A stretch of 36,488 bases of DNA from the NCBI RefSeq assembly GCF_000739635.1, contig NZ_BATQ01000177.1, forward strand, positions 1 through 36,488, in the 5' to 3' direction. The notes beneath the pieces were generated by a model, which was not told the DNA's origin, did no database searches, and saw only the letters and a program-made list of their open reading frames with translations. The position numbers and the translations under genes are program-made. The stretch is from Verrucomicrobium sp. BvORR034 (GTDB lineage: Bacteria; Verrucomicrobiota; Verrucomicrobiia; Verrucomicrobiales; Verrucomicrobiaceae). Below are positions 14,429 through 35,921 of the stretch, piece after piece; within the stretch, counting starts at the first letter, position 1; the number at the start of each line of letters is the position of its first letter.

Positions 14429-17400
14429 ATGGTTATGACACGCTTCCATACGTCTGTGAAAATCGGGTTCGCTGTGGCCTTGGGGATGGCCGCTTCTGAC
14501 GGGTACGCTGCCACTGATTACAACAATGATGGGTACGACGACGTCTGGCAGCAACGCCACGGCATCACAGTTTCCTCATACCCGCTCACCAGCGACTACG
14601 ATGGTGACGGTGTTACCAATCAGGCGGAAAGCGTCGCGGGTACGGATCCCAAGAACTCCTTGGATGTGCTGGCTGTGACCAATATTGTGGTTTCAGGCAC
14701 CAACATCCAGGTATCGACCAAGACCCAATCGGGCAAGCGGTACAAGCTGCAAAGCAGTGCTGCCCCGAACGGCCCCACCTGGACGGATGAAGGCAGCCCG
14801 CTGACCGGCAACGGCACCGTGCAGACCTTCACAGTCGCAATGGGCAGTGGCACGGCACCCAAGTTCTACCGGGTGCAGGCCGAAGACCAGGACACCGATG
14901 GTGACGGCATCTCTGACTGGGCCGAAGGGCTCATGGGGACCAACGCCACCCTGGCCAACTCGCCCAACAACGCGTCTGGCGGTGTCGCTTCCGACAGCGA
15001 AACCCTGCGCAGCCTGATGTCGATCACCACCAGCGTGGTCACCGCCAGTGCTTATGAAAAGGAAGCCACCACTGCCCGCCTCCGGCTGACCCGCTCCTAT
15101 GGCACGATGCCACTGACAGTCTCCTACACCACGGCTGGCAACACGGACACCATCAAAGGATCCGCCGCCGCCGGGGACTACACGCTGAAGGATTCGGCGA
15201 ACGTTGCGATTGGCAGCTCCTTCACCATTCCTTCCGCCGCGACCCAGTACGATGTGCAGATCGCCCCGGTGCTGGACACAGCCAACGAAGTGCCGGAAAT
15301 GCTGCGCCTCACCTTCCGCAGGGTGACCGGCAGCGTGACCACCCAACTGGGCAACACCCAGGCGGTGCACATCCGGGATGCCACGAACACCACGGCCAAC
15401 CGCAAGCTCTTTGTCGCCTATCTGGGGCGTGAAGGTGGCGCGGTGACCACCGCCACTGGCGTGGCCACGCTGCTGCTCAACGGGGACAACACTTCCGCTG
15501 AAGTGAACTCCACCTTCAACAACCTGACCTCTCTCCAGAGTGCCTCCCACCTGCATGCGGCTCCCGCCGGCACCCCGCAGGCGAGTGGCCCCATCATTGA
15601 GAGTCTGGAGCTTGGCCAGGTAACAGCCCATGTGTACCCCATCACTGCGGAGTCGGTGGCTCTATGGAACACCGATCAGGCCACGTTGGACAATCTCTAC
15701 AACGGGTACATCTACATCAACGTTCATACCGCGAACTACGGCAGCGGTGAAATCCGTGGCAACTACGCTCTGGCCAATGGGTCCGTCACGCCGCCTCCGG
15801 CACCTGCGGCTCCCCCCACCTATGGCAGCACGGAGTTCCCGAACCTCGCGGCCAGTGGCGTGAACAACAACCCGGCGCTGGATCGTGACATCGCCCGCTT
15901 CCTCACCCAGGCCAGCTACGGCCCCACGCCGGAAAGCATCCAGGAGGTGAAAGACCTCATCGCCGCCAATGGCAACAACGCCATCAACGGCTACACGGCC
16001 TGGATCAACAAGCAGGTCGACCTGGTACAGACTCCCTCACCGTCCCTGACCACCCTGGTGCAGGCTGCCGATGTGGAAGAGTTCATCATCCGCAACAACA
16101 AGCCGGTCACCTACGGCAACGATCCGCAGTTTGGTGGCAACTCCACCCAGTGGAACGGCACCACACGGGCCTGGGATGCCAGCAGCATCTGGAACAACAA
16201 CTACCCCTTCCAGAACAACCGCCGTCGTGAGTGGTGGACGCTGGTGCTGCAAAGCAAGGACCAGCTCCGTCAGCGGCTGGCCCTGGCCCTGAGTGAGATC
16301 GTGGTGATCTCTGAAAATGACGGCACGGTCTCCACCTACCACTACGGTGCCTCCAACTACTGGGACATGCTGGCGCAAAACGCGTTTGGCAAATACCGCA
16401 CCATCCTGGAGAACGTGACCTACAGCCCCATGATGGGCATCTACCTGAGCCACCTGAAGAACCAGAAGGCGAACGGTCAGATCAGCCCGGATGAGAACTA
16501 TGCGCGGGAAATCATGCAGCTCTTCTCCATCGGTCTGGTGCTGCGCCACCAGGACGGCAGCCTCCAGCTCAACACGAGCGGCCTGCCCGTCTCCACCTAT
16601 GACCAGACGGACATCACGGAACTGGCCCGCGTCATGACGGGGCTCAGCTTTGGCAAACGCAATGCCACGGTGGTTGGGGCTCCTACCTACCCGACCGCCA
16701 CCAACCAGGCGATCGGTGCGGTGGAAGACAACACGAACTTCTTCCAGGGTGGTGGCCACCGCTTCTGGCAGGCCTCCTGGGTGAATCCCATGAAGATGTT
16801 CGACGCCTACCATGACTTTGCCGCGAAGACGCTCTTCGCGGGCAAGGTGGGTGCCACCGCCATCCCTGCGCGGACCAACAACGCAACTCCGGAGTCGGAA
16901 GGCAATGCCGATGTGATCGATGCGCTCAACGTGCTGGCTGGCAATCCTGCCAGCAGCACCTACAACGGGCACCCGAACACCCCGGTCTTCGTCAGCCGCC
17001 TGCTCATCCAGCGGTTTACCACCTCGAACCCCAGCGCCGGCTACCTGTACCGCGTCACCCAGAAGTACAAGGACACCAACGGCAACCTGGGCGAGGTGAT
17101 CAAGACCATCCTGCTGGACTACGAAGCCCGCAGCCTGAACACTGCGGATTCCGTGGTGGCGTTTGGCAAGGCCAAGGAGCCGCTCCTGCACTTCACCGCC
17201 ATGATGCGCGGCGTAAAGAGCTACACCGGCTCCCCGCTGGCCACCCTGAACACGATGCCGGTGACCTTCACCGCCACGGAGTCCCCGGTGACCACCGCCT
17301 ATCCCTCCACGGAGCTTGCCAAGTTCCCCGCTGGTGCGGTGCGGTTCCGCTTCTTCGACACGCAGTCCTCGATCACCCAGTCTCCGCAGCGCGCTCCCAG

Positions 17401-18103
17401 CGTGTTCAACTGGTTCATGCCGGACTATGTGATGCCTGGACCGCTGGCTTCCGCCGGTCTCTTCGCACCTGAGTTGCAGGTGGCGACAGAGTCCAACGTG
17501 GTGAACGTGGTCAACTCGCACTACAACATCCTCTTCACCTCGGTGCCACCGACGGTGAAAGCGGGTCGCGGGCTGGATGACTACCTGAACCTCGCCTCCT
17601 ACCGCAGCGCGGCCGGAGTGCAGCTCACCGTACCAGCCTACGCGGTTTCCGCAGGATACTTCAGCGCGAACACCTTCGATCCCGCAGGTGCCACCACGCA
17701 GCCCGGAGACATCAACAACCAGGTGGACAACTTGATTCCCAAGTTCGACGACCTGATCACGCTGTACACCAACACCTACACCACCACGCTCGCCGCTCAG
17801 TATGCGCCCGCCGCGGTCCCGGCCACCCCGGGCACCACACAGAAGCAGGCAGCCCATGCCGAAGCGGTGAAGGTGGTGCTGGACCAGTGCGACCTGCTCT
17901 TCACCTCCGGTTATCTGAAGGCGAAGTTCGGCAGCGCCGCCGCTCCGAACCCCCGCCAGTCCATCATTGACGGCGTCAACCTCATCGCGGCCAACAACCG
18001 GCACACGACGGATCCGACGAACTTCACCAATGATGCCCGCACCCGGGTGCGCAACCTCCTCTACCTGGCGGTCAGCGCCCCTCAGGCCATCGTTCTCAAA
18101 TGA
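14429..18103 (+). CDS. secreted multidomain DUF1800 protein (module 1)
   Basis: The protein has 1224 aa with a Sec signal peptide (about 1-28). Regions in order: calcium-binding type-3 repeat-like segments (DYNNDGYDDVW, DYDGDGVTNQAE near 28-75; DQDTDGDGISDWAE near 151-165); a Calx-beta-like domain (about 200-315, starting AYEKEATTARLRL); a CHRD-like domain (about 325-448, ASHLHAAP ... YINVHTANYGSGEIRGNY); and the DUF1800 domain (about 484-1224) with FLTQASYGPTPESIQEV, RRREWWTLVLQSKDQLRQRL and PDENYAREIMQLFSIGL near 686. DUF1800 has no established biochemical activity and is commonly encoded beside DUF1501. The gene is followed after 57 bp by the DUF1501 gene. Its close paralogue is at 25036-28686. 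Confidence 0.9.
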   Translation: MVMTRFHTSVKIGFAVALGMAASDGYAATDYNNDGYDDVWQQRHGITVSSYPLTSDYDGDGVTNQAESVAGTDPKNSLDVLAVTNIVVSGTNIQVSTKTQSGKRYKLQSSAAPNGPTWTDEGSPLTGNGTVQTFTVAMGSGTAPKFYRVQAEDQDTDGDGISDWAEGLMGTNATLANSPNNASGGVASDSETLRSLMSITTSVVTASAYEKEATTARLRLTRSYGTMPLTVSYTTAGNTDTIKGSAAAGDYTLKDSANVAIGSSFTIPSAATQYDVQIAPVLDTANEVPEMLRLTFRRVTGSVTTQLGNTQAVHIRDATNTTANRKLFVAYLGREGGAVTTATGVATLLLNGDNTSAEVNSTFNNLTSLQSASHLHAAPAGTPQASGPIIESLELGQVTAHVYPITAESVALWNTDQATLDNLYNGYIYINVHTANYGSGEIRGNYALANGSVTPPPAPAAPPTYGSTEFPNLAASGVNNNPALDRDIARFLTQASYGPTPESIQEVKDLIAANGNNAINGYTAWINKQVDLVQTPSPSLTTLVQAADVEEFIIRNNKPVTYGNDPQFGGNSTQWNGTTRAWDASSIWNNNYPFQNNRRREWWTLVLQSKDQLRQRLALALSEIVVISENDGTVSTYHYGASNYWDMLAQNAFGKYRTILENVTYSPMMGIYLSHLKNQKANGQISPDENYAREIMQLFSIGLVLRHQDGSLQLNTSGLPVSTYDQTDITELARVMTGLSFGKRNATVVGAPTYPTATNQAIGAVEDNTNFFQGGGHRFWQASWVNPMKMFDAYHDFAAKTLFAGKVGATAIPARTNNATPESEGNADVIDALNVLAGNPASSTYNGHPNTPVFVSRLLIQRFTTSNPSAGYLYRVTQKYKDTNGNLGEVIKTILLDYEARSLNTADSVVAFGKAKEPLLHFTAMMRGVKSYTGSPLATLNTMPVTFTATESPVTTAYPSTELAKFPAGAVRFRFFDTQSSITQSPQRAPSVFNWFMPDYVMPGPLASAGLFAPELQVATESNVVNVVNSHYNILFTSVPPTVKAGRGLDDYLNLASYRSAAGVQLTVPAYAVSAGYFSANTFDPAGATTQPGDINNQVDNLIPKFDDLITLYTNTYTTTLAAQYAPAAVPATPGTTQKQAAHAEAVKVVLDQCDLLFTSGYLKAKFGSAAAPNPRQSIIDGVNLIAANNRHTTDPTNFTNDARTRVRNLLYLAVSAPQAIVLK

Positions 18104-18160
18104 CCGTGCTCCGCGTGATGTTGTTTCAAATATCCTCAAACCTTTTCCAAGCTTCCAAAC

Positions 18161-19777
18161 ATGAATCTTCTGTTTCGTCGCAAGAATGAACCCAGCCGCC
18201 GCCAGTTCCTCGTCCAGACGGGGTGCTCCGCCATGGGCATCACCAGCGTGGTGAACACGCTGGCCCACCTCAAACTCATGCAGGGTGCGCTCAATGCGCA
18301 GTCCTCCGGGGGAGGGTACAAGGCCCTGGTCTGCGTCTTCCTCAACGGGGGCAACGACTCCAACAACATGCTGATGCCCTTTACAGGCACGGCACGTACG
18401 GACTATGAAACCGGCCGCGGGGTGCTCACCATCCCCACGGCCAACGCCAATGCCGCACTGAATGCGCTCCAGATCAATGCCACCAACGTCGCCGAAAGCG
18501 ATCCATTGGGCGGCTATCTGGGCACCTTCGGCGTGCACCCGAAGTTCAACCATGTGAAGACCATGTTTGACACCGGGGAACTGGCCTTCGTCTCCAACGT
18601 GGGCACCCTCACCCAGCCCGGTGTGACGCGCGCCAACTACGCCACGGCCTCCAAGCCGCCGCAGTTGTTCTCGCACTCCGACCAGCAGGTGCAGTGGCAG
18701 AGCTCCATCCCAGACAAGCCCTTCACCAGCGGCTGGGGTGGTCGTGTCGCGGATCTGCTCGACCCGGTGTACAACCCCACCACGGGGAATGCCTCCATGT
18801 CGGTCTCCATCTCCGGCGTGAACAGCTTCCAGGTCAGCCCCACAGGTGTGGTGGCCCCTTATGTGATGACCAGCAGCGGGGTGGTGAGCTTTGGTGGTTA
18901 TGGCACGAACTACGCGAGTGCCGTGAACAACCCCAGCCTCCTCTTCCAGGCCGCGAATTACAAGACGGGTGAGCAGGGTCGACGCCTCCAGGCGTTTGAG
19001 AACATCCTCCAGATGACTCATGCCAGCCTGATTGAAAACGCCTACAACGGCGTGGTCATGAACGCCCGTGTCACGGAGGGCATGGTCGGCACCGCCCTTC
19101 AGGGCACGGCGGGCGCCACCGCCGGCACCAGCACGCTGGACACGGTCTTCAATGACGCATTCGTGGGTTCAGGGTTCAACGCCAACAACGACTTCACCAA
19201 TCAGATGAAGCTCGTGGCCCGCCTCATCGCGGGCCGCTCCTCCCTCGCCAACACCCGCCAGATCTTCTTCGTCCAGCAGGGTGGCTTTGACACCCACACG
19301 ACGCAGATCCCGGCTGGCAGCAACACGGGTGGCCACACCGGGTTGATGAACAACCTCAACTGCACGCTCAAGGGCTTCCGCGATGCGCTCACCTCCATGG
19401 GCGTGTTCGACAACGTGGTGACCTTCACCGCCTCCGACTTCACCCGCACCTTCACGGCGAACAAGGGTGACTCCTCTGCAGGCAGCGATCATGCCTGGGG
19501 TGGACACGCCATCGTCATGGGCGGTGCGGTGAAAGGCCAGCGGGTGTACGGGAAGTTCCCCGTGCTCAAGCTCGGTGCCGCCACCAACAGCATCGACTCC
19601 ACCGGAGCCAGCGGTCGCTGGATCCCGAGCTCCAGTGTGGACCAGTACGCCTCTGTCCTGGCCAAGTGGCTGGGCGTGGGCGATGCGCAGCTGGCCAACA
19701 TCTTCCCGAACCTGAGCCGGTTTAACAGCCCGTCCAGCGCGGCTGCCAACCTGGATTTCCTGGACTTCAGCGTCTAA
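18161..19777 (+). CDS. Tat-exported DUF1501 protein (module 1)
   Basis: The 538 aa begin with a twin-arginine signal (SRRQFLVQTGCSAMG, RR at 13-14) suited to export of a folded, possibly metal-loaded protein. DUF1501 belongs to the alkaline phosphatase/sulfatase-like superfamily. Its hallmarks are visible: LNGGNDSNNMLMP near 62-74, FVQQGGFDTH near 370-379, and SDHAWGGHAIVMGG near 442-455, where Asp and His are likely metal ligands (inference). The substrate is unknown. It pairs with the DUF1800 gene 57 bp upstream and is followed by a strong terminator at 19793-19833. The paralogue at 23334-24953 is very similar. Confidence 0.9.
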   Translation: MNLLFRRKNEPSRRQFLVQTGCSAMGITSVVNTLAHLKLMQGALNAQSSGGGYKALVCVFLNGGNDSNNMLMPFTGTARTDYETGRGVLTIPTANANAALNALQINATNVAESDPLGGYLGTFGVHPKFNHVKTMFDTGELAFVSNVGTLTQPGVTRANYATASKPPQLFSHSDQQVQWQSSIPDKPFTSGWGGRVADLLDPVYNPTTGNASMSVSISGVNSFQVSPTGVVAPYVMTSSGVVSFGGYGTNYASAVNNPSLLFQAANYKTGEQGRRLQAFENILQMTHASLIENAYNGVVMNARVTEGMVGTALQGTAGATAGTSTLDTVFNDAFVGSGFNANNDFTNQMKLVARLIAGRSSLANTRQIFFVQQGGFDTHTTQIPAGSNTGGHTGLMNNLNCTLKGFRDALTSMGVFDNVVTFTASDFTRTFTANKGDSSAGSDHAWGGHAIVMGGAVKGQRVYGKFPVLKLGAATNSIDSTGASGRWIPSSSVDQYASVLAKWLGVGDAQLANIFPNLSRFNSPSSAAANLDFLDFSV

Positions 19778-19792
19778 GGTTCCTGAACTTGC

Positions 19793-19833
19793 AAAGGCTC
19801 CGGCAAACAAAGGTTGCCGGAGCCTTTTGTTTT
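19793..19833 (+). terminator. rho-independent terminator
   Basis: A perfect 14-bp stem (AAAGGCTCCGGCAA at 19793-19806, complement at 19814-19827) has a 7-nt loop, with a T-rich run TTTTGTTTT overlapping and following the right arm. It sits 16 bp after the DUF1501 stop and ends 17 bp before the ATG at 19850. The small downstream gene is therefore reached only by read-through or its own promoter. Confidence 0.85.
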
Positions 19834-19849
19834 CATTCTACTAGCTGCC

Positions 19850-20377
19850 ATGTCCTCCTCTCAAAAATCGCGGAGCACGTTATTGCTGATTGTCGCCGTC
19901 ATCGCCATCGCTGCGGTGGTGCTGGTGTTTGTGATCCGTTCCTCCCCAGACGCAGCCTCACCCACCACGCCGGGCAAACCTACGGCGGAAGCTCCCAAGC
20001 CCGTTCAACCGGTAGTGGATCTCGGACCGGTATCTGTACACCAGTCCGCACCGGAGCTGGCCGCTCAGCTCACCCGGAATGATCTGGACTCCATGGCGCG
20101 CATTGAAGCGGTGAACCAGATCCTGTATGTGTACCGCCAGGGCTTTGGCGGCAATCCCTCTGGTCAGAACGAGGACATTGTGGCCGCCATACTGGGCGAA
20201 AACGAAAAGCGCACCGCCCTGCTGCCCAAGGACTGCCCAGCCATCCAGGATGGCAAGCTGGTGGACGAATGGGGCACCCCCTACTGGTTCCATTCCGTGA
20301 CGGCGAAGGTCATGGAAATTCGCTCCGCCGGGCCTGATCGCGATCTTTTCACCAATGATGACATCTTCGTCCAGTAG
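19850..20377 (+). CDS. membrane-anchored protein with GspG-like C-terminus (module 1)
   Basis: The 175 aa start at ATG 19850 (MSSSQKSRSTLLL); an upstream in-frame start at 19814 lies in the terminator arm and is rejected. One N-terminal transmembrane helix (about 10-30) is followed by a Pro-rich linker (about 33-58), a helical part (ARIEAVNQILYVYRQGFGG), and a compact end with DEWGTPYWFHSV and SAGPDRDLFTNDDI. That end matches the order of features in GspG here (DPWQHKYQYR ... SLGPDGVEGTDDDIGNW). There is no prepilin cleavage motif, so it should remain anchored. Paralogues are at 22701 and 35283, each after a DUF1501 gene. Function unknown. Confidence 0.8.
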   Translation: MSSSQKSRSTLLLIVAVIAIAAVVLVFVIRSSPDAASPTTPGKPTAEAPKPVQPVVDLGPVSVHQSAPELAAQLTRNDLDSMARIEAVNQILYVYRQGFGGNPSGQNEDIVAAILGENEKRTALLPKDCPAIQDGKLVDEWGTPYWFHSVTAKVMEIRSAGPDRDLFTNDDIFVQ

Positions 20378-20381
20378 CAGC

Positions 20382-22487: not shown

Positions 22488-22533
22488 CAGCCTCCAATCG
22501 TGGACTTGGTGGGCAAAGATGTCCGCAATCAGG

Positions 22534-22640: not shown

Positions 22641-22700
22641 AATGCCGCCTCCGTCGATGTCACTTGCTTCCTCGAACCCCAACTGACGCACTGACGCCCC

Positions 22701-23237: not shown

Positions 23238-23266
23238 GAGATTCAGGAAATGACAGCAACCACCAG

Positions 23267-23304: not shown

Positions 23305-23333
23305 AATCTCCAGTAGAATCGCACGGACCCGGA

Positions 23334-24953: not shown

Positions 24954-24998
24954 GGAAGAAACAGGTTGGAATTGAAGTCTGGAAGATGACATCGGGAC

Positions 24999-25025: not shown

Positions 25026-25035
25026 ATCATTCCGG

Positions 25036-28000
25036 TTATTTCAACACCACGGCCTGGGGCAGCGTGGCCAGGAGGTAGAAGGTGTTCCTCACGCGGGTGC
25101 GCGCATCATTGGCGAAGTTCGTCGCATCCGTCGTGTGCCGGTTGTTGGCCGCGATCAGGTTCACACCGTCAATGATGGACTTGCGCGGGTTGGACGTCGA
25201 GGAGCTCCCGTAAGCCGATTTCAGATAGCCCGCTGCAAGGAGGCTGTCACCGAAGTCCACAATCACCTTCACCGCCTCAGCATGGGCCGCGGCCTTCTGC
25301 GTCGTTCCCGGAGTGGCCGGGACTGCCGCAGGGGCATACTGGGCCGCGAGGGCCGTCGTATAGGTGTTCGTGTACAGGGTGATCAGCTCATCGAACTTCG
25401 GAATCAAGTTGTCCACCTGCTTGTAGAGGCTGCCCGGGGAGTTGGTTCCAGGAGTAAACTGGGTGGCCGTGAAGTAACCCTTGTCCACCGCCCACTGGGG
25501 GATGGAGAGCTGCACTCCGGTGCCTGTTTGATAGCCGGCAATGTTGGGCAGGTCATCCAGGTTCCGTCCTGCATTGGCCGTGGGAGGCACGGAGGCAAAG
25601 ATGGTGTTGTAGTGGCCGTTGACCACGTTCACCACATTGGACTCCGTCGCCACCTGCAGCTCCGGTGCCACCAGGCCCGCTGAGGCCAGCGGTCCGGGCA
25701 TCACATAGTCCGGCAGGAACCAGTTGAACACGCTGGGGGCGCGCTGCGGAGACTGGGTGATCGACGACTGCGTGTCGAAGAACCGGAAGCGCAGGGCACC
25801 GGCCGGGAACTTGTTGTACTCCGACACCGGATACGCCGTGGTCACCGGGGACTCCAGCGAAGTGAAGGCGATCGGCACCGTGGTGAGGTTCACCAGAGGA
25901 AGGCCGGTGTAGCACTTCAAGGAGCGCAGCATGGAGGTGAAGTGGAGCAGAGGCTCCTTCACCTTTCCAGATGCCACCGTCCCATCCGCGATGGAGAGGC
26001 TGCGGGCCTCATAGTCCAGCAGGATGGCCTTGATCACCTCACCCAGATCTCCGCAGGTGTTCTTGTACACGTTGGAAACGCGATACAGATAGCCGGAGCT
26101 GGGGTTCGAGGTGGTAAACCGCTGGATGAGCAGACGGCTGATAAACACCGGAGTGTTCGGGTGACCGTTGTAAGTGCCGCCGGAGAGCGGGCCTGCCAGG
26201 GCGTTGAGCGCATCCGTGATGTCCGCCAGGCCTTCCGACTCCGGCGTGGTGTTGTTCGTACGTGCGGGGATGGTCACCTGACCGGCCTTGCCATTGAAGA
26301 GCGTTTTGGCACCGAAGTCATGGTAGGCATCAAACATCTTCAGCGGATTCATCCACGCGGCCTGCCAGTAGCGGGCGGACGTGCTGGACTGGAAGAAGTT
26401 CGTGTTGTCCTGAAGCGCACCCACCGTCTGGCTGGAGGGGTTGGGATAGGTGGGAGCCGTCACGCTGGCGTAGCGCTTGCCAAAGGCAAAGCCGGTGAAG
26501 ACACGGGCCAGCTCCGTGATGTCGGGCTGGTCATACGTGGCGATCGGCAGGCCGTTGTTGTCCAGTTTCAAGCTGCCATCCAGATGGCGCTGCACCAAGC
26601 CGATGGAGAACAGCTGCATCACCTCACGGGCGTAGTTTTCATCCGGCCGGATGTTGCCCGTCGCCTTCTGGTTGCGCAGGAAGCTCAGGTAGTACGCCAT
26701 CACCGGGCTCTGGCTCACGTTGGAGAGGATCTGGCGATACCGGCCAAACGCACCCTGCGACAGCATGTCCCAATAGTGAGCCATCCCGTAGTGGTTGGTC
26801 TGCAGGGTGGAGTCGTTCTCCGAGACCACCACAATTTCACTCAAGGCCAGGGCCATGCGCTGACGAAGCTGGTCCTTGCTCTGTAGCACCAGCGTCCACC
26901 ACTCGCGGCGCCGATTCGCATAGTTGGGGTAGTTGTTCTGGTGGATGGTGCTGGCCACCCAGGCGGTGCCATTCCAGGAGAAGGAACCGGCACCGAACTG
27001 CGGGTCACGGTTGTAGTTGATGGGCTTGTTGCCGCGCAGATAGAAGTCCTCCATGTCCGCGGCCTGCACCAGTGTGGTGAAGGAAGGCGAAGGGGTCTGT
27101 CCCAAGTCGATCTGCTTATTGATCCAGGCAGCGTATCCGGCAAGGGCGTCGTTGCCATTGGCGGCAATGAGGTCCTTCACCTCCTGGATGCTTTCCGCCG
27201 TGGGGCCATAGGTGGCCTGGAGCAGGAAGCGGACGATGTCGCGGTCCAGATTGGAACCGGTGAGGGCCGGCCAGCCCGTGCTGCCATAGACTGGCGGAGC
27301 AGGCGGGGCCGGAGGCTCGGCCACCGAACCGTTGGCCAAGGCGTAGTTTCCTCGGATTTCACCGCTCCCGTAGTTGGCCGTGTGCACGTTGATGTACACG
27401 TACCCGTTGAAGAGAGCGTTGAGCGTGGCTTGCGAGGTGTTCCAGCCACCGACCGGCTCCGGCACGATGGTGTACACGTGGTCGGTCACCTGGCCGAGCT
27501 CAAGGCTTTCCACGATCGGGCCGCTCGCTTGAGCATCCGCCGCGGGGGCAGCGTGCAGGTGGGAGGCGCTCTGGAGGGAGGTCAGGTTGCCAAAGGTCGA
27601 GTTGACCGTGGCCTGGGTGTTGTCCCCGTTCAACATGAGGGTGGCCAATCCGGTGGCCGTGGTGATGGCCCCGCCCTCCCGGCCCAGGTAGGCCACAAAG
27701 AGCCGGCGGTTGGCCTCGGTGTTGGTGGCATCACGAATATCCACCTGCGCCGTGCCCAAGGGCGTGGTCACACCACCGGACACTGACTGGAAGGTGAGGC
27801 GGAGCACCTCCGGAACTTCGTTGTTGGTATCCGTAGAAGGTGTCACCCGCACATCGTACTGCGCCGTCCCTGCCGGAATGGTGAAGCTCGTACCGGAAAT
27901 GGTGCTACCGGCACCATTCTTGAGCACGTAATCCGAAGCAGAGGCGGAACCGAGCGTGGCATCAGAATTGCCGGCAACAGTGAATGACACCAAAAGCGGC

Positions 28001-28686
28001 ATGCTGCTGTCGCTCCGGCTCAACCGCACCACGGCGGCCGTGCCTTCTTTTTCATAGGCGCTGGGTGTCACCACGCTGGCAGAGATGGAAAGCAGACTGT
28101 TCAGCGTCGCCCCATCTGTTCCCACCCCGCCGGAGGCGTTGTTGGGTGAGTTGGCCAGGGTTGGAGAGGTGGTCATCTGGTCTTCCGCCCAGTCCGATAC
28201 CCCATCACCATCTGTATCCTGGTCACCAGCGATCACCCGGAAGAATTTGGGTGCCGTGCCGGACCCGAGCGGCACGGTGAAGCTCTGCGACACCCCGGTT
28301 CCCGTGAGCGGAGAGCCTTCTGCCGTCCAAGTGGGGCCATTGGGGGCAGCGCTGCTCTCCAATACATAGCGTTTCCCCGTCTGGGTCTTCACGGAGACCT
28401 GGAAGTTGCCTCCCGAAGCGCTCACCTCCCCGACCTTCAGCACATCCAGAGGATCGTTCGGGTTCGTCCCCGCAACGCTCTCCCCCTGGTTGGTGGCACC
28501 ATCACCGTCCGCATCTTCTGCGAGCGGGTGCGACGCCACCGTAATGCCGTAGCGGTTCTGCCACACGTCATCGTAGCCGTCGTTGTTGCTGTCGGTGGCT
28601 CCATGAACCAACGACACTGACGTGGCGGCCAGTCCCAATGCCGCAGTCATTCCTTTTATTTTGCACAGTGAGGAGGGGCGCATCAT
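25036..28686 (-). CDS. secreted multidomain DUF1800 protein (module 2)
   Basis: The 1216 aa are a close paralogue of the protein at 14429 with the same order: signal peptide (to about 29, SLVHGA), calcium-binding segments (DSNNDGYDDVW; DADGDGATNQGE; DQDTDGDGVSDWAED), a Calx-beta-like domain (AYEKEGTAAVVRLSRS), a CHRD-like domain (ASHLHAAP ... YINVHTANYGSGEIRGNY), and DUF1800 (FLLQATYGPTAESIQEV; RRREWWTLVLQSKDQLRQRM; PDENYAREVMQLFSIGL near 677). The start has two adjacent ATGs (28686, 28683). It is the first gene of the minus-strand module, divergent from module 3 across a 586-bp gap. Function unknown. Confidence 0.9.
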   Translation of the reverse strand: MMRPSSLCKIKGMTAALGLAATSVSLVHGATDSNNDGYDDVWQNRYGITVASHPLAEDADGDGATNQGESVAGTNPNDPLDVLKVGEVSASGGNFQVSVKTQTGKRYVLESSAAPNGPTWTAEGSPLTGTGVSQSFTVPLGSGTAPKFFRVIAGDQDTDGDGVSDWAEDQMTTSPTLANSPNNASGGVGTDGATLNSLLSISASVVTPSAYEKEGTAAVVRLSRSDSSMPLLVSFTVAGNSDATLGSASASDYVLKNGAGSTISGTSFTIPAGTAQYDVRVTPSTDTNNEVPEVLRLTFQSVSGGVTTPLGTAQVDIRDATNTEANRRLFVAYLGREGGAITTATGLATLMLNGDNTQATVNSTFGNLTSLQSASHLHAAPAADAQASGPIVESLELGQVTDHVYTIVPEPVGGWNTSQATLNALFNGYVYINVHTANYGSGEIRGNYALANGSVAEPPAPPAPPVYGSTGWPALTGSNLDRDIVRFLLQATYGPTAESIQEVKDLIAANGNDALAGYAAWINKQIDLGQTPSPSFTTLVQAADMEDFYLRGNKPINYNRDPQFGAGSFSWNGTAWVASTIHQNNYPNYANRRREWWTLVLQSKDQLRQRMALALSEIVVVSENDSTLQTNHYGMAHYWDMLSQGAFGRYRQILSNVSQSPVMAYYLSFLRNQKATGNIRPDENYAREVMQLFSIGLVQRHLDGSLKLDNNGLPIATYDQPDITELARVFTGFAFGKRYASVTAPTYPNPSSQTVGALQDNTNFFQSSTSARYWQAAWMNPLKMFDAYHDFGAKTLFNGKAGQVTIPARTNNTTPESEGLADITDALNALAGPLSGGTYNGHPNTPVFISRLLIQRFTTSNPSSGYLYRVSNVYKNTCGDLGEVIKAILLDYEARSLSIADGTVASGKVKEPLLHFTSMLRSLKCYTGLPLVNLTTVPIAFTSLESPVTTAYPVSEYNKFPAGALRFRFFDTQSSITQSPQRAPSVFNWFLPDYVMPGPLASAGLVAPELQVATESNVVNVVNGHYNTIFASVPPTANAGRNLDDLPNIAGYQTGTGVQLSIPQWAVDKGYFTATQFTPGTNSPGSLYKQVDNLIPKFDELITLYTNTYTTALAAQYAPAAVPATPGTTQKAAAHAEAVKVIVDFGDSLLAAGYLKSAYGSSSTSNPRKSIIDGVNLIAANNRHTTDATNFANDARTRVRNTFYLLATLPQAVVLK

Positions 28687-29272: not shown

Positions 29273-32200
29273 ATGATATCCCGTACCGTAAGGCGGCACC
29301 TCGCCGCATGGATGGCCCCTGCCCTGTCAGCGGCCCTCGTCATCACCACCCAGGCCGCCCCCAAGTATGAGAGCGGCGTGGTCAACAACGCCCAGGCCAA
29401 TGCCACCACATGGCACACCGTCACCTTCACCACACCGTTCTCCGCTCCGCCCGTGGTGGTGCTGGGAACGCCGACTCAGTCGGATGCGCAGGCCCTCACC
29501 ACGAGGGTGAGGAACGTCACCGCCACCAGCTTCCAGTACCAACTGGACGAGTGGGACTACCTGGACGGCGTGCATGCGGCCGAGGCGGTGCAATACCTGG
29601 CCCTCGAGCCGGGGGTGCACACCATCGGCGGCATCACCTGGCAGGCCGGTCGCAGTTCCAGCATCACCAAGTCTGCCTCCACGGTGAACTTCAGTTCCGC
29701 CTTCACCGCCGCTCCAGTGGTGCTGGCGCAGGTGGAAAGCGCGGTCAACAGCAAGGCGCTCACCTCCCGGGTCCGGCTGGTGACCACCTCGAACTTTGAG
29801 CTGAAGCTCACCACCCAGGAGTCGGACACGGCTGCCGTGTCCGGGGAGTCGGTGGGCTGGATCGCCGTGGCGACCGGCACGGGCACAGTGGATGGCGCCA
29901 CCTTCCAGTCGGCTCGTACGGGTGCGACAGTCACCCAGGCATGGACTGCGCAGCTTTTCACGGGTGCCCACCGGCAGCCGCTGTTCTTCGCCCAGGCCCA
30001 GACGGTGAACGGAGCCGATCCCTTCACCATCCGTCGGCGCAATCTAAGCAGCACCGGAGTGGAGATCTTCCTGGAGGAGGAACAGTCCGCCGATGCGGAG
30101 GTGAACCATGTGGCTGAAGACGTGGGTTACCTAGTCTTTGCCGAGAGCGCCGGGGAACTGCGCGCCAAACTGGATCTCGTGGAACTGGTGCAAAACCAGA
30201 GCAGCGCGACCACCTGGCACACGGAGACCTTTGCCCGCAGCTATACCAATCCCGTCGTGGTCTTTGGCCCCCTCACCCAGAACGGGGCTGACCCGGCACG
30301 AGTGCGGGTTCGCAACATCACGAGCACCGGATTTGAGTGGCAGCAGGACGAGTGGGATTCGCAAGACGGGGCCCATGGATCAGAGACGGTGCACTACCTC
30401 GTGGCGGAAGAGGGCTCCTATCAGATCGGTGGCCTGCGCTGGCAGTTCGGCCGGTACGCCGGCGTCACTCACACGGCAGGCACCAAGACGTTTGCCGAGG
30501 CCTTCCCGGTAGCTCCAGCGGTCTTTGGCCAGGTGGTCACCACCAATGAGGCCAGTGCGGTGTCCCCCAGGGTCAGCGCCGTCACCACCACGGGCTTCAG
30601 CCTTCGTCTTCAGGAGGAAGAAGCCGCCAATCAAACGCACGCCGGCGAAACCGTGCACTACGCCGCCGTGGAGAAGGGCAGCGGCCGCATCGTCACCAGC
30701 CAGTTCGTCGTCGAAGCCGGCAGTTCAGGAGCCAACGTCACGAATGCGTTTAAGACCGTGAACTTTGCCCGCAAACTGGCAGACCCGTTTGTGCTGGGCG
30801 AGGCCCAGACGCTCAATGAAGCCGACCCCATCGTGGTACGGCAGCGCAACCTGGGCCCTACCAAGGTGGACCTGCGGGTCCAGGAAGAGACTTCCGCCAA
30901 CAGTGAGATCACGCACGCGGCGGAGAACGTGGCCTACCTCGTGGTGTCCGGCTCGCTGGACGTAGATGAAGACGGGCTGCCCGATGCCTGGGAAACCTCC
31001 GTGGGCCTGAATCCCGCAGATCCCAATGATGCCGGGCTCGACGGTGATGGCGACGGCATCACGAACCTCAATGAGTATGCCTATGGCACCAGCCCCAGCA
31101 GCTTCGACTCCGGCGGCACAGTGACCGTGGCCGCGAGTGTGTCCGATGGTTATGAGAAAGAAGGCATCCCCGCACGCTTCACAATCAGCCGGACCGGCGG
31201 CACCGTCCCGGTGACCGTGGCCTACGCGCTCTCCGGCCGGGCCACAGCCCCAGGAGCCAGCGGCGCTGACTATGCCACCACGAACAGCAGCGGCGGCACG
31301 CTCAATGGTTCGGTGACCATTGGCTTCAACGCCACCTCGGCAGATGTGGTGATCCAGCCCGTGGTGGATACCGTGAACGAGTACCCGGAAACGGTGGTGC
31401 TCACTCTGAGCAACGGCAGCACCTACACGGTGGGCTCCGCCGCCAACAGCACCGCCCAGGTGAATGACGCCACGGCCACCACGGCCAATGAGGAGCTCTT
31501 CGTCGCCTTCCTCGGACGTCAGGGTTCCGCCCAGACCTACGCGTCGGGATTCGCCACCATCCATCTGAGCGGGCCGAAGAACAGCGCCCGGGTGAACCTG
31601 AGCTTCAGCGGTTTGACCTCGAACCAGACCAATGCCTACCTCCGCTATGGTGTCGCCTCAGGCGTCGGACCGGAACTGCGCCCCACCCTGCCCATCGGCC
31701 AGGTGGTGAACGAGCCCTGGACCATCGGCCCCGTGGGGGCGCTCACCGGCCAGAACATCGTGGACGCCATCTACCAGACTGGTGGGAAGTGGGTGTACGT
31801 CAACATCGGAACAGGAAACTACCCTGCGGGTGAGATCACCGGCATTGCCGCCCGCCAGACGGGCTCCAGCACCTTCACGCCGCCGCCGGCACCTCCGGCC
31901 ATCACTCCGCTCGCGGGCGATGCGCTGAAACGGGATGTGGCCCGCTTCCTCACCCAGGCCACGTTTGGCCCGACCAAGGCAGACATCGACGCGCTCGTCA
32001 CCCAGATCAACACCACCCATGCGGGTGACCGGATCGCAGCCTACGACGCCTGGATCGACGCCCAGTATGCCCTGGATGCGACCAAGCTCCTGGCCTACAC
32101 CGAGGCGGCCGACGCCCATGAGTGGACCCTGCGCGGAGCCAGCCCGAGCAACTTCGTCAACAACAACGAGCCCCGGCACCACAACCGGCGTCGCGGCTGG

Positions 32201-33733
32201 TGGACCCTCTCCGCCAAGGCGCACGACCAGCTCCGTCAACGGGTCGCCTTTGCCTTGAGCGAGATCCTCGTGACCTCGGACGAGCTCAATATCCTGCGCA
32301 CCCGCCACTATGGCCTGGCCAACTACTACGACCTCCTGGCGGCGGCGGCTGACGGCAACTACCGCACTCTGCTGGAGAACGTGAGCAAGAGCCCGGTGAT
32401 GGGCAAGTACCTCAGTCATCTGCAGAACCAGAAAGCCATCCTCGATGGCAATGGCAATGTGCTGGTGAGCCCGGATGAGAACTATGCCCGCGAGATCCTG
32501 CAATTGTTCTCCATCGGCCTGGTACACCGTCACCCGGACGGCAGCCTCCAGCTCGGTCCGGACGGCCTGCCCATCCAGACCTACAACAATGACGACATCA
32601 CGAACCTCGCGCGGGTCTTCACCGGCTGGAGCTTCAGCAAGCGTCATGGAGCCGCGGCGGATGGCTACCCGGTGGTGGACAACACCAACTTCAGCCAGGG
32701 CAACGGCCCTGCCTACTTCCAGGCCTCCTGGACGAACCCGCTGAAGAACTTCGCCACCTATCATGACACGGGAGCCAAGACCGTCCTGGGAGGCAGTATC
32801 GCCTCCGGCCTGAATGGCCAGCAGGACCTGACCGCGGCGCTGAACATCATCTTCGCCCACCCCAACGTCGGCCCCTTCGTAAGCCACCTGCTCATCCAGC
32901 GGCTTGTCACCTCGAACCCCAGCGCCGGCTACATCCACCGGGTGACGCAAAAGTTTGAGAACAACGGCTCCGGCGTGCGCGGCGATCTGAAGACCGTCAT
33001 CAAGACCATCCTGCTGGACCATGAGGCCCGCAGCCTGGACGTGGTGGCCAACATCGGCTACGGCAAGCCCAAGGAACCCCTCATCCGCTACGTGCAGCTT
33101 CTGCGCACGCTTGGGGCGTGGTCGGACCTGCCGCTGAGCACGCTCTCCAGCCACGGCTATCCCGCAGGCCAGCTCAACAACTTCCCTTCCGGGACCACAC
33201 TGTTGCGCTATCCCAACACGGACGCACGCCTGGCCCAGACCCCGCAGAGCGCGCCCAGCGTCTTCAACTGGTACCTGCCCAGTTACAACCCCGGTGGCGC
33301 AACCGGCGCGGCCGGCCTGGTGGCTCCGGAGCTGCAGCTCAGCACGGAGACGAGTGTGGTTCAAGCCATCAACTACCACTACACCGTCGCCCAGGTGAAC
33401 AACGGCCAGAACGTGGACGCCCTCTATGGTGCCACGGTGGCGCTGGACGACAACGTCCGGCTGGACCGCACCCCCTATGAAACGCTCTACGACGCGGAAA
33501 TAACCGCTGGCAAGACAGTGCCCCAGGCCCTGGCCACGGTGCTGGACTCCCTGGACCTGGTGCTGACCTCCGGCAACCTGAAGGCCCGCTACGGCAGCGC
33601 CGCCGCGCCCAACCCACGCAGTGTCATCATCGACTCCGGAGCCTCGCTGGCCGCCGGCACCGCCACCGCAGTGCGGGTGAAGGAGCTGCTCTACCTCCTG
33701 GCGACCTCCCCGGAGTTCGTCATCCAGAAGTAA
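29273..33733 (+). CDS. giant secreted DUF1800 protein with six lectin-like repeats (module 3)
   Basis: The protein has 1486 aa with a signal peptide (MISRTVRRHLAAWMAPALSA ..., to about 29). Residues ~30-559 are six beta-sandwich-like repeats of about 80-100 aa resembling H-type lectin domains (F..PF..PPVV ... RVRNVT..SFQYQL). They form two triplets (about 30-294 and 295-559): repeats 1/4, 2/5 and 3/6 match best. Next come calcium-binding segments (DVDEDGLPDAWE; DGDGDGITNLNE), a Calx-beta-like domain (about 620-730), a CHRD-like region (about 740-865) and DUF1800 (about 885-1486; FLTQATFGPTKADID, PDENYAREILQLFSIGL near 1066). The repeats suggest carbohydrate or surface binding (inference). The DUF1501 gene follows after 38 bp. 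Confidence 0.88.
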   Translation: MISRTVRRHLAAWMAPALSAALVITTQAAPKYESGVVNNAQANATTWHTVTFTTPFSAPPVVVLGTPTQSDAQALTTRVRNVTATSFQYQLDEWDYLDGVHAAEAVQYLALEPGVHTIGGITWQAGRSSSITKSASTVNFSSAFTAAPVVLAQVESAVNSKALTSRVRLVTTSNFELKLTTQESDTAAVSGESVGWIAVATGTGTVDGATFQSARTGATVTQAWTAQLFTGAHRQPLFFAQAQTVNGADPFTIRRRNLSSTGVEIFLEEEQSADAEVNHVAEDVGYLVFAESAGELRAKLDLVELVQNQSSATTWHTETFARSYTNPVVVFGPLTQNGADPARVRVRNITSTGFEWQQDEWDSQDGAHGSETVHYLVAEEGSYQIGGLRWQFGRYAGVTHTAGTKTFAEAFPVAPAVFGQVVTTNEASAVSPRVSAVTTTGFSLRLQEEEAANQTHAGETVHYAAVEKGSGRIVTSQFVVEAGSSGANVTNAFKTVNFARKLADPFVLGEAQTLNEADPIVVRQRNLGPTKVDLRVQEETSANSEITHAAENVAYLVVSGSLDVDEDGLPDAWETSVGLNPADPNDAGLDGDGDGITNLNEYAYGTSPSSFDSGGTVTVAASVSDGYEKEGIPARFTISRTGGTVPVTVAYALSGRATAPGASGADYATTNSSGGTLNGSVTIGFNATSADVVIQPVVDTVNEYPETVVLTLSNGSTYTVGSAANSTAQVNDATATTANEELFVAFLGRQGSAQTYASGFATIHLSGPKNSARVNLSFSGLTSNQTNAYLRYGVASGVGPELRPTLPIGQVVNEPWTIGPVGALTGQNIVDAIYQTGGKWVYVNIGTGNYPAGEITGIAARQTGSSTFTPPPAPPAITPLAGDALKRDVARFLTQATFGPTKADIDALVTQINTTHAGDRIAAYDAWIDAQYALDATKLLAYTEAADAHEWTLRGASPSNFVNNNEPRHHNRRRGWWTLSAKAHDQLRQRVAFALSEILVTSDELNILRTRHYGLANYYDLLAAAADGNYRTLLENVSKSPVMGKYLSHLQNQKAILDGNGNVLVSPDENYAREILQLFSIGLVHRHPDGSLQLGPDGLPIQTYNNDDITNLARVFTGWSFSKRHGAAADGYPVVDNTNFSQGNGPAYFQASWTNPLKNFATYHDTGAKTVLGGSIASGLNGQQDLTAALNIIFAHPNVGPFVSHLLIQRLVTSNPSAGYIHRVTQKFENNGSGVRGDLKTVIKTILLDHEARSLDVVANIGYGKPKEPLIRYVQLLRTLGAWSDLPLSTLSSHGYPAGQLNNFPSGTTLLRYPNTDARLAQTPQSAPSVFNWYLPSYNPGGATGAAGLVAPELQLSTETSVVQAINYHYTVAQVNNGQNVDALYGATVALDDNVRLDRTPYETLYDAEITAGKTVPQALATVLDSLDLVLTSGNLKARYGSAAAPNPRSVIIDSGASLAAGTATAVRVKELLYLLATSPEFVIQK

Positions 33734-33771
33734 TCGTCACTTCAGTTACAACCTAGAACTTCTTTTGTACC

Positions 33772-35286
33772 ATGAAAAAGAATGACCGTGAATTGCTCGC
33801 CACCCGCCGCCGTTTCCTGCGCCAGTCCGCCTGCTCGGCGCTGGGCATCACCGGCGTGGTGAACACCCTGGCGCACCTGCGCCTGGTGAACTCCGCCCTC
33901 GCCCAGGCGGCTCCGCTGCCGGACTACAAGGCCCTGGTGGTGATCTTCCTCTTCGGCGGGAACGACTCCAACAACCTGCTCATCCCGCAGAAGAACCACC
34001 CGGCTTATGCCGACTACAAGAGTGCACGCGGGGTGCTGAAAATCCTGGACCCGACAGACAGCGCCTATGTGGCGGGCAATCCCGCCTCCATCCCGCTCAC
34101 CACCACGAGCGGTGACTACGGCGTGCACCCCTCCGCCCAGGGGCTGGCCACCTTGTTCAATACAGGGGAGCTCGCCTTTGTCTCCAATGTCGGGACGCTG
34201 CTGCATCCCACGACGCGGGCGCAGTTCCAGGCCGGATCCGTTCCCCTGCCACCGCAGCTCTTCTCCCACTCCGACCAGCAGGTGCAGTGGCAGAGCTCAG
34301 TGCCAGACCAGCCCTTCACGAGCGGCTGGGGCGGCCGGGTGGCAGACCTGCTCGCCGCACAAAGCTACGCTCAGGGGCAGGTCTCCCTCTCCGTCAGCCT
34401 GGCCGGCATCAACAGCCTGCAGGTGGGCAGCCAGGAGGTGCAGTACGCACTCACCCCGGAAGGGGCGGTGCCGCTCACCGGCTACAGCGATGCCACAGGT
34501 CCCTATGGGCTGGCGCTCAACACCAACGGCACGTACAAAACCTCCCTGCAGGGCAAACGGCTCAAGGCGTTCGATGACATAACGCACTACACCTACCAGC
34601 ACCTGCTGGAGGACTCCCATGCCGGAGTGGTGAAGCGCGCCCAGGCCAATGAAGGTCTCGTGGGGGCGGCCTTCACCGAGGCTGCCGCTTCCGGGGTGGA
34701 CTTTGACACGCTCTTCACCAATGCCCAGACCACTCTGGGCGACCAGCTCAAGGCCATCGCCAAGCTCATCGCGGGGCGCAACAGTCTGGGGAACCGCCGG
34801 CAGATCTTCTTTGCCAGCATCGGGGGCTTTGATACGCATCAGGACCAGCTCGATGCGCAGGTGAATCTCGTCGGGGAGCTCAGCGGAGCCTTCAAGGCTT
34901 TCCGTGATACTCTGGTGGCGCTGGGCGTGTATGACAACGTGCTCTCTGTCACGCACTCTGACTTCACCCGCACGCTCACCCCCAATGGCCAGGACCCCAA
35001 CACCGCAGGCTCCGACCACGGCTGGGGCGGCCACCAGATCGTCTTTGGCGGTCCGGTGAATGGAGGCCAGGTCTATGGCACCTTCCCCAGCCTGAAGCTG
35101 GGTCAGGACCAGGATGCAGGGACCAGCAACCGCGGGCGGTGGATTCCCACCACGGCGGTGGACCAGTACGCCGCCGTCGCCGCAAACTGGCTCGGCGTCA
35201 GCAACGGAGATCTGGGCACGATCTTCCCCAACCTGGGGCGTTTCAATGATCCCTTCGGTGGCAGCGCCAACCTTGCCTTCGTATGA
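33772..35286 (+). CDS. Tat-exported DUF1501 protein (module 3)
   Basis: The 504 aa begin with twin-arginine signal TRRRFLRQSACSALGITG (RR at 12-13). DUF1501 hallmarks: FLFGGNDSNNLLIP, FASIGGFDTHQDQ near 345-357, and SDHGWGGHQIVFGGPVNGGQ near 413. It is more divergent from the other two DUF1501 proteins than they are from each other, with a shorter middle region. It follows its DUF1800 partner after 38 bp, and its stop overlaps the start of the small anchored gene by 4 bp (ATGA at 35283-35286). Substrate unknown. Confidence 0.9.
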   Translation: MKKNDRELLATRRRFLRQSACSALGITGVVNTLAHLRLVNSALAQAAPLPDYKALVVIFLFGGNDSNNLLIPQKNHPAYADYKSARGVLKILDPTDSAYVAGNPASIPLTTTSGDYGVHPSAQGLATLFNTGELAFVSNVGTLLHPTTRAQFQAGSVPLPPQLFSHSDQQVQWQSSVPDQPFTSGWGGRVADLLAAQSYAQGQVSLSVSLAGINSLQVGSQEVQYALTPEGAVPLTGYSDATGPYGLALNTNGTYKTSLQGKRLKAFDDITHYTYQHLLEDSHAGVVKRAQANEGLVGAAFTEAAASGVDFDTLFTNAQTTLGDQLKAIAKLIAGRNSLGNRRQIFFASIGGFDTHQDQLDAQVNLVGELSGAFKAFRDTLVALGVYDNVLSVTHSDFTRTLTPNGQDPNTAGSDHGWGGHQIVFGGPVNGGQVYGTFPSLKLGQDQDAGTSNRGRWIPTTAVDQYAAVAANWLGVSNGDLGTIFPNLGRFNDPFGGSANLAFV

Positions 35287-35921
35287 GTCACGCCACCTCC
35301 TCATCCTACCCGTTGTCGGGGAGCAGCCGCGTGGCGGTTGCGGGTGCATTTGGCCTCGTGCTGCTGGGCAGCGTGGCATCCATCTGGCTGCTCACGCGCC
35401 AGGTTCAGGATGTCACGGGCTCTCCTGGAGTCCTTCGGGAGACATTTGCCCGGACCCCTGCCCTGCTGCCTCCCGCCCCTGCCCCCACGACAACGGCCAC
35501 GCCGTTGCCCAAGGCCCCGCCCAACACCGATGGCCGCATCCTCGCCACCCGGCGGGATGGGCTGGTGGTGGTGCCGGAGCTCGCTGTTGAGGCGGCCGAG
35601 CTCAACGCCAAGGAGTCCACCATTCAAAGGGATCTCGAGATCCTTGAAACTCTGGTCGGTTTCTTCCGGAGCTTTCAATATGGCGAAAATCCATTTGGCG
35701 GCGAGAACGACGAGATCGTGGCCCAGCTCTCGGGGCGCAATCCACGGAATCTGGCGGTGATCCCGCCGGAGAATCCAGCGATTGATGGCCGCGGACGTCT
35801 GCTGGACCGGTGGGGCACCCCCTTCCACTTCCACCCGGTGACCCATGAGATCTTGGAAATAACCTCAGCAGGCCCAGATAAGAAGCTCTGGACGACGGAC
35901 GATGTGAAGAGTGTGCCGTGA
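35283..35921 (+). CDS. membrane-anchored protein with GspG-like C-terminus (module 3)
   Basis: The 212 aa have a Ser-rich start, one transmembrane helix (VAVAGAFGLVLLGSVASIWL, about 17-37), a long Ala/Pro/Thr linker (about 55-80), a helical region (IQRDLEILETLVGFFRSFQY) and the end DRWGTPFHFHPVTHEILEI, then SAGPDKKLWTTDDV. This is the divergent third member of the family at 19850 and 22701. It retains the N-x-x-IV-x-x-L-x-G-x-N block (ENDEIVAQLSGRN) and the W-G-T-P-(Y/F)-x-F-H motif. The ATGA overlap with DUF1501 implies translational coupling, unlike modules 1 and 2. Function unknown. Confidence 0.8.
   Translation: MSHATSSSYPLSGSSRVAVAGAFGLVLLGSVASIWLLTRQVQDVTGSPGVLRETFARTPALLPPAPAPTTTATPLPKAPPNTDGRILATRRDGLVVVPELAVEAAELNAKESTIQRDLEILETLVGFFRSFQYGENPFGGENDEIVAQLSGRNPRNLAVIPPENPAIDGRGRLLDRWGTPFHFHPVTHEILEITSAGPDKKLWTTDDVKSVP

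What the first reader, a model, noticed from the sequence alone, without database searches (positions are those of the whole stretch)
14429..35921. A three-gene module (DUF1800 / DUF1501 / anchored GspG-like protein) occurs three times beside a T2SS
The sequence shows three sets of the same three genes in the same order: 14429-20377 (+), 28686-22701 (-), 29273-35921 (+). DUF1800-DUF1501 pairing is known in Planctomycetes and Verrucomicrobia. The third, small anchored protein as a constant partner is, as far as I know, not described. With a complete T2SS cluster next door, a Sec-exported giant protein, a Tat-exported metallo-enzyme-like protein and an inner-membrane protein echoing GspG, a dedicated secretion or surface-assembly system is a reasonable hypothesis.
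Basis: partly seen in the sequence, partly recalled or inferred. Interest (0 to 1): 0.78.

Follow-up and report, generated by a model that had tools for sequence, protein, structure and literature searches.

The report
Anchored GspG-like partner of DUF1800–DUF1501 operons
Verrucomicrobia repeatedly carry a three-gene operon for a giant sugar-binding-type surface protein, an exported enzyme-like protein and a membrane-anchored look-alike of a secretion-machine subunit, which may be a purpose-built link between the cargo and the machine that exports it.

Summary
Three sets of DUF1800 – DUF1501 – small anchored protein lie at the stated coordinates beside a type II secretion (T2SS) cluster; a fourth small copy follows DUF1501 on another contig. 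The trio is widespread: of 100 relatives of the small protein fetched from the same order, 93 follow a DUF1501 gene and 87 also have DUF1800 upstream. In reverse, 14 of 20 sampled giant DUF1800 genes have it, and 0 of 20 short ones.

The small protein shares the globular GspG domain (hhalign 95.4%) and its invariant Asp triplet, but no member of 96 has a prepilin motif. The DUF1800 partners carry varied glycan-binding-type heads. DUF1501 has a Tat motif and an alkaline-phosphatase-superfamily fold.

T2SS link: all 30 genomes with a clear family hit in a phylum-wide sample also hit GspK. 11 of 124 listed loci lie within 20 kb of GspK (about 1 expected; 5 of the 11 in the window's genus). In two other genera the small gene runs into gspE-gspF.

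Best reading: an exported surface module with its own anchored, GspG-derived docking or folding partner. Co-inheritance is shown; export and binding are inferred. The pair is known; I found no report of the third partner.

The parts
14429..18103 (+). Module A, giant DUF1800 protein (P0001): signal-peptide-like start, TSP3, CHRD, DUF1800
18161..19777 (+). Module A, DUF1501 protein (P0002) with twin-arginine motif
19850..20377 (+).
22701..23237 (-). Module B, small anchored GspG-like protein (P0005)
23334..24992 (-). Module B, DUF1501 protein (P0006); predicted alkaline-phosphatase-superfamily fold
25036..28686 (-). Module B, giant DUF1800 protein (P0007)
29273..33733 (+). Module C, giant DUF1800 protein (P0008) with N-terminal H-type lectin domains and a CHRD domain
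33772..35286 (+). Module C, DUF1501 protein (P0009)
35283..35921 (+). Module C, small anchored GspG-like protein (P0010); overlaps the DUF1501 stop by 4 bases
217..1992 (-). GspE-type ATPase of the T2SS cluster (best model TIGR02533, under its equivalog cut-off)
2788..5663 (+). GspK (2788-3810), GspL-like (3893-5110), GspM-like (5091-5663)
5701..8421 (+). Secretin GspD
8471..12137 (+). GspF (8471-9781), GspG (9819-10274, over the NCBIfam cut-off), GspH-, GspI-, GspJ-like pseudopilins
12222..13016 (+). P0011 ('P11'): T2SS-linked protein of unknown family, found as GspL-GspM-P11-GspD in relatives; a second copy follows the small gene of the fourth module

Best explanation
The trio is a surface module exported in steps. 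(1) A giant Sec-exported protein carries a swappable glycan-binding or adhesive head and a helical DUF1800 base. (2) A DUF1501 protein, a Tat-exported member of the alkaline-phosphatase superfamily, crosses the inner membrane folded. (3) The small protein stays in the inner membrane by one uncleaved helix and holds a GspG-type domain out on a proline-rich linker. I propose that it binds its own DUF1501/DUF1800 cargo and presents it to the T2SS, because its domain copies the major pseudopilin without being able to polymerise. It may also help the cargo fold, as LipH does for LipA. The T2SS then carries the cargo to the cell surface, where the head binds sugars and DUF1501 acts as a hydrolase. 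Shown: conserved operon, co-divergence of partners, domain resemblance, absence of the prepilin motif, and restriction to genomes with GspK in the sample searched. Inferred: signal peptides and anchoring (from sequence), binding, docking, export, enzymatic activity.
For: Synteny: 93/100 and 87/100, and 69/80 and 65/80 in the 80 best of 248 loci found by another route, partly the same genomes. Reciprocal: 14/20 giant against 0/20 short DUF1800. Pairing: over 92 loci, distances of small proteins and of their neighbouring DUF1501 correlate (Spearman 0.56; shuffling partners within genomes gives mean 0.36, max 0.53, 0 of 2000 reach it). GspG domain: hhalign 95.4%, E 1.8e-8, 98 columns; best PDB chain 3g20, a type II secretion protein (GspG, name recalled), E 0.0044 for the whole chain though no single stretch passes; T2SSG matched by 13 of 52 members. 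D163, D170, D171 invariant in 52 members, the same spacing as D138, D145, D146 in 18 true GspG. Prepilin motif in 0 of 96. Co-occurrence: 30 of 30 genomes with a clear family hit also hit GspK where 198 of 288 genomes do (p 6e-6; 1.2e-4 if 26 GspK-negative genomes of the Akkermansia-like genus g12 are assumed and removed, of which 20 are listed). Adjacency: 11 of 124 listed loci within 20 kb of a listed GspK, about 1.06 expected; five genera, 5 of the 11 loci in the window's own genus. small-gspE-gspF on one strand in L079/L177 (one locus), L089, L111, L133 (two genera); small followed by a GspG and a weakly matched GspH in L217. In the window's genus a copy of the T2SS gene P11 directly follows the small gene of the fourth module (L042, L149). 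Heads: H_lectin in 7, PA14 in 5, GLEYA in 4 of 26 DUF1800 proteins of such modules. Tat: R26, R27, F29 invariant in 42 DUF1501.
Against: No experiment. 113 of 124 listed small loci are not within 20 kb of a listed GspK, both lists are capped at 150, and leaving out the window's genus 6 near loci remain. Co-occurrence rests on one marker and 23 genera, some GspK hits are weak (down to E 1.8e-4), and tree relatedness was not corrected. Genomes that lack GspK in the order are mostly one genus that also lacks DUF1800. The co-divergence test is also met by an operon that simply duplicates as a block. GspG-like proteins are numerous in these genomes (up to 20 matches, the number scored, per genome), so a GspG domain need not mean contact with T2SS. 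Six of 20 giant DUF1800 genes lack the small gene, one of them also DUF1501. Small genes also stand without DUF1501 directly before them: L070, L076, L093, L122, L133, L135, of which L133 has a divergent DUF1800-DUF1501 pair nearby and L135 a full trio with another small gene 3 kb upstream.
Confidence: 0.42

Rival explanations
1. Dedicated membrane-anchored foldase or steric chaperone: the small protein matures the DUF1501 or DUF1800 protein in the periplasm and has no contact with the T2SS, which only exports the finished product (works like LipH for LipA).
For: Same layout as LipH in outline: encoded just after the client, one anchor helix, flexible linker, periplasmic domain (LipH gene layout recalled). 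LipH/LipA precedent with T2SS export (PMC13381987, start of abstract in the listing). One of 52 members weakly hits the lipase chaperone model (E 8e-4).
Against: The domain is GspG-like, not Lif-like; the lipase chaperone hit is 1 of 52 and probably chance. In L133 the small gene runs into gspE-gspF without DUF1501 before it.
Confidence: 0.22
2. Envelope complex unrelated to T2SS: the three proteins stay together in the periplasm or on the outer membrane, and the GspG-type domain is reused as a general calcium-stabilised module. The T2SS association reflects lineages rich in envelope systems.
For: Most modules are far from a listed GspK; GspG-like proteins are numerous in these genomes; a genome with 67 PulG-like homologues has been reported (PMC13274419, passages).
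Against: 30 of 30 co-occurrence, direct joins with gspE-gspF in two genera and with GspG in an Opitutia contig, and the P11 copy in the window's genus.
Confidence: 0.24
3. The small protein is a real pseudopilin that joins the pseudopilus.
For: GspG domain and Asp triplet.
Against: No prepilin cleavage motif in any of 96 members, and a long proline-rich linker between helix and domain.
Confidence: 0.04
4. Ordinary DUF1800-DUF1501 operon with an unimportant passenger gene.
For: Short DUF1800 pairs (0 of 20) and 6 of 20 giant DUF1800 genes do without it.
Against: Retention with both partners in 87 of 100 loci, matches in 34 of 43 genera of the order (weak hits included), invariant residues and partner-specific divergence.
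Confidence: 0.05

Closest known systems
DUF1800–DUF1501 operon pair (PF08811, PF07394), noted beside bacterial chitin synthases in PMC5122149
   Same: Same two families in one operon, Tat-type DUF1501
   Different: In the passages seen no giant DUF1800 with lectin-type heads, no GspG-like third gene and no T2SS link is mentioned
GspG / T2SSG major pseudopilin (TIGR01710, PF08334)
   Same: Globular domain with helix, beta part and C-terminal Asp loop; 95.4% profile probability
   Different: Uncut N-terminal helix, no prepilin motif, long linker, encoded with cargo-like genes
LipH/Lif lipase foldase
   Same: Membrane-anchored periplasmic partner of an exported client that uses T2SS (abstract start in listing; gene layout and linker recalled)
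   Different: Unrelated domain; the clients here are a DUF1800/DUF1501 pair
PVC DUF1501 gene clusters (Kamneva 2012, cited in passages of PMC4452313 and PMC4960237)
   Same: DUF1501 partner expanded in the same superphylum
   Different: Other partners (recalled: DUF1549/DUF1553 cytochrome-type proteins); the original paper was not held
PulG-like pseudopilin expansion in Verruconatronum (PMC13274419)
   Same: 67 PulG homologues in one Verrucomicrobiota genome; a pseudopilin over-expressed on alginate
   Different: Called pseudopilins there; the text has no word beginning with DUF1, so no DUF1800/DUF1501 association is described

Membership tests
GspG major pseudopilin | GspG globular domain | tested here: met
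   hhalign 95.4%, E 1.8e-8; Pfam T2SSG in 13 of 52 members at E 0.01 or better; 3g20 E 0.0044 for the whole chain
GspG major pseudopilin | Prepilin N-terminus cut by prepilin peptidase | tested here: not met
   0 of 96 members carry the motif in the first 60 residues; the 18 GspG in A6 show it
GspG major pseudopilin | Equivalog score of TIGR01710 (88.85 bits) | tested here: not met
   P0005 17.7 bits; 9 of 52 members match at E 0.01 or better, best E 5.8e-4
GspG major pseudopilin | Calcium ligands at the C-terminal loop | tested here: inconclusive
   Asp triplet invariant with the same spacing in both families; that these are the calcium ligands is recalled
DUF1800 | Pfam PF08811 above cut-off | tested here: met
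   Three window proteins above cut-off; 26 of 26 module proteins match at E 0.001
DUF1501 | Pfam PF07394 above cut-off and twin-arginine start | tested here: met
Alkaline phosphatase superfamily (DUF1501) | Superfamily fold | tested here: met
   Model pLDDT 74.8, pTM 0.80. The 50 Foldseek rows shown are phosphatases, sulfatases, NPPs, LtaS and YejM (superfamily membership recalled), but best E is 0.012 and TM-scores are low. VIA: 5egh Z 14.2, rmsd 3.5, 218 aligned; 478 of 999 chains Z 5 or more; the 50 entries shown are NPP/autotaxin types or choline sulfatase
Alkaline phosphatase superfamily (DUF1501) | Metal ligands and nucleophile | tested here: inconclusive
   D79, H185, D389, H391, D441, D458, H459 invariant in 42 sequences; not mapped on coordinates, nucleophile not identified
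Type II secretion substrate | Export lost in a gsp mutant | not testable with these tools
   Only co-occurrence and adjacency
LipH/Lif foldase | Lif sequence family | tested here: not met
   1 of 52 members hits NF002335 at E 8e-4, the other 51 do not at E 0.01
Verru_Chthon cassette (NCBIfam) | Cassette protein models | tested here: not met
   No such hit in P0005, P0008 or P0009 nor for the 52 small members, at E 0.01

The most novel reading that the evidence does not exclude
Verrucomicrobiota give surface cargo its own membrane-anchored pseudopilin mimic. Each mimic recognises its cognate DUF1501/DUF1800 pair and docks on the T2SS in place of a GspG subunit. Cargo selection is thus encoded beside the cargo instead of residing only in the machine.
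Probability: 0.27. Interest if true: 0.85.

Novelty: new variant of a known kind. Interest (0 to 1): 0.62.

Why it matters
[quoted passage not shown] A cargo operon that carries its own anchored GspG-like protein would give a genetic and structural handle on that question. It would also suggest a function for two widespread families of unknown function, DUF1800 and DUF1501, as glycan-directed surface proteins.

Tried and rejected
P11 as a GspC homologue: suggested by its place between GspM and GspD, but no relevant Pfam match in 21 members (two lone hits, CarboxypepD_reg and GcrA) and no PDB match, so left as unknown. DUF1800 fold: the predicted domain (pLDDT 77.9, pTM 0.85) has no Foldseek match better than E 2.9 and best VIA Z 4.5 among 91 chains; this does not show that the fold is new. 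Solved relatives of DUF1501 and DUF1800 by sequence: none below E 0.09. GspG as a T2SS marker: too common (all 189 genomes match at E 0.001, 150 over the cut-off), so GspK was used. A4 hits weaker than about 1e-17 align mostly to the C-terminal loop and were treated as other GspG-like proteins; 68 of 288 genomes hit at 1e-5, and I set the threshold of 1e-25 that leaves 30 after seeing this. A true pseudopilin was rejected for lack of the motif. The name 'T2597' in my scripts was a guess from memory; NCBIfam gave no family.

Papers: passages only of PMC5122149, PMC6653060, PMC4452313, PMC4960237, PMC5615132 (no DUF1501 in its main text), PMC13274419 and PMC10128026. PMC13381987: start of the abstract in the listing only. 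Literature searches behind 'no report found': (open-licence library only).

Full report
What is there. The window is bases 1-36488 of contig C24 of an 8.58 Mb genome in 200 contigs; the nearest named relative found is Verrucomicrobium sp. BvORR106 (where records very near the window may be left out). It holds a T2SS cluster followed by three sets of DUF1800, DUF1501 and a small anchored protein. In the cluster GspG and GspK pass curated cut-offs; GspE, GspD and GspF have the right best models but score under the NCBIfam equivalog cut-offs; GspL and GspM are weak; H-I-J rest on prepilin-type starts and position. Sets A and B are close copies facing each other; C is distant. A fourth small gene lies on contig C22 after a DUF1501 gene.

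Is the third gene constant? I searched 189 genomes of the order with the three small proteins: 111 have a match at E 1e-5, weak GspG-like hits included. I fetched 100 of the 150 listed places without looking at neighbours. DUF1501 lies directly upstream on the same strand in 93, and DUF1800 as well in 87. Of the 13 without the full trio, six meet the contig end within 1.8 kb. L076 has only 4.4 kb upstream and shows neither partner. L152 has DUF1501 but no DUF1800. L070, L093, L122, L133 and L135 lack DUF1501 directly before the small gene. In L093 a sulfatase and a cytochrome c giant stand there. In L133 an AhpC/TSA-TPR gene stands there and a DUF1800-DUF1501 pair faces the other way. L135 has a full trio with another small gene 3 kb upstream. 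In the 80 best of 248 named loci found by another route, partly the same genomes, the counts are 69 and 65. In reverse, 14 of 20 hand-picked giant DUF1800 genes have the small gene after DUF1501, and 0 of 20 short ones (two of those cut by contig ends). The third gene therefore marks the giant subtype.

What is the small protein? 98 of 100 members have a hydrophobic 19-residue stretch of mean hydropathy 1.3 or more (the others: 1.19, and 0.78 in one cut by a contig end). The median length is 193 residues. A proline-rich linker follows, then a domain with invariant G116, D139, H148, G161, D163, D170, D171 in 52 sequences. This domain aligns with GspG over 98 columns (95.4%, E 1.8e-8). True GspG carries the same Asp spacing and a prepilin start; none of 96 small proteins tested has the prepilin motif. 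It is GspG-like but not a GspG.

What are the partners? The 26 DUF1800 proteins scanned (two of the window, 24 of relatives) carry CHRD (20), TSP3 (11), H-type lectin (7), PA14 (5), GLEYA (4) and, singly or in pairs, Ig/PKD domains in front of DUF1800. These are adhesive or glycan-binding types of heads on a common base. The DUF1800 base is predicted to be mostly helical with no credible match in the PDB by Foldseek. DUF1501 has an invariant RR-F motif and invariant Asp/His residues in 42 sequences. Its model matches NPP and choline sulfatase structures at Z 13-14, while Foldseek alone gives only weak E-values to the same superfamily.

Link to T2SS. In 288 genomes of the phylum, the 30 with a small-family hit at E 1e-25 or better all have a GspK hit, against 198 overall (p 6e-6; 1.2e-4 if 26 genomes of the Akkermansia-like genus g12 are assumed among the negatives and left out). 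The 30 fall in 23 genera; some of their GspK hits are weak, down to E 1.8e-4. In the order the split at E 1e-5 is 109 of 158 against 2 of 31. Of the two, G173 has GspD-P11-GspM-GspL (L330) and G187 is a weak hit. Of 124 listed small loci in genomes with a listed GspK, 11 are within 20 kb of it, about 1.06 expected under a simple model; they fall in five genera, 5 of them in the window's genus. In L079/L177, L089, L111 and L133 the small gene is followed on the same strand by gspE and gspF; in L217, from Opitutia, by a GspG and a weakly matched GspH. P11, which sits between GspM and GspD in 18 loci, has in the window's genus an extra copy straight after the small gene (L042, L149). Small proteins diverge together with their own DUF1501 neighbour more than with other copies in the same genome (92 loci, 17 genomes with several modules); block duplication would also give this.

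Mechanism. I favour an anchored docking or folding partner that takes a Tat-exported enzyme and a Sec-exported giant to the T2SS. The operon, the domain, the missing prepilin motif and the genome-level restriction are shown; every physical contact is inferred. A foldase without T2SS contact and a T2SS-independent envelope complex remain serious rivals.

Known or new. The DUF1800-DUF1501 operon is in print (PMC5122149, passages). My searches found no report of the third gene or the T2SS link; the library holds open-licence papers only. I rate it a new variant of a known kind.

Noticed in passing
window 12222-13016; L042:8275-9246; L149:9543-10523; L326-L352: P11, a conserved T2SS-cluster protein of no known family (GspM-P11-GspD in 18 loci), with invariant W-x2-NPF and N-x2-T in 21 sequences; possibly the missing GspC equivalent. 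No relevant Pfam and no PDB match.
   Followed up: partly
window 20355-22487; L057, L059, L133: Exported-type TPR plus AhpC/TSA-redoxin protein recurs beside the module: homologues in 18 of 100 and 5 of 80 loci.
   Followed up: partly
L261, L263, L265: Short DUF1800-DUF1501 pairs lie tail to tail with GspG-H-I-J-K in three genomes of one genus (3 of the 20 sampled), so the T2SS neighbourhood may extend to the pair without the third gene.
   Followed up: no
L093:2974-9431: A small-family gene follows a PF00884 sulfatase and a cytochrome c giant instead of DUF1501/DUF1800; sulfatases belong to the same enzyme superfamily as DUF1501's fold (superfamily recalled).
   Followed up: partly
L086, L118, L119: A second DUF1800 gene begins directly after the small gene, suggesting tandem modules. 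L207 has two small genes in one locus.
   Followed up: no
own genome, 56 places: 56 DUF1501 matches, most with high scores and outside the trio.
   Followed up: no
window 13260-14306 (-): Unknown secreted-type protein between T2SS and module A, with homologues in 4 of 100 and 2 of 80 module loci; no Pfam or NCBIfam family.
   Followed up: no
window 2044-2703 (-): Protein with a signal-like start and a strongly acidic C-terminal tail between GspE and GspK; no Pfam hit.
   Followed up: no
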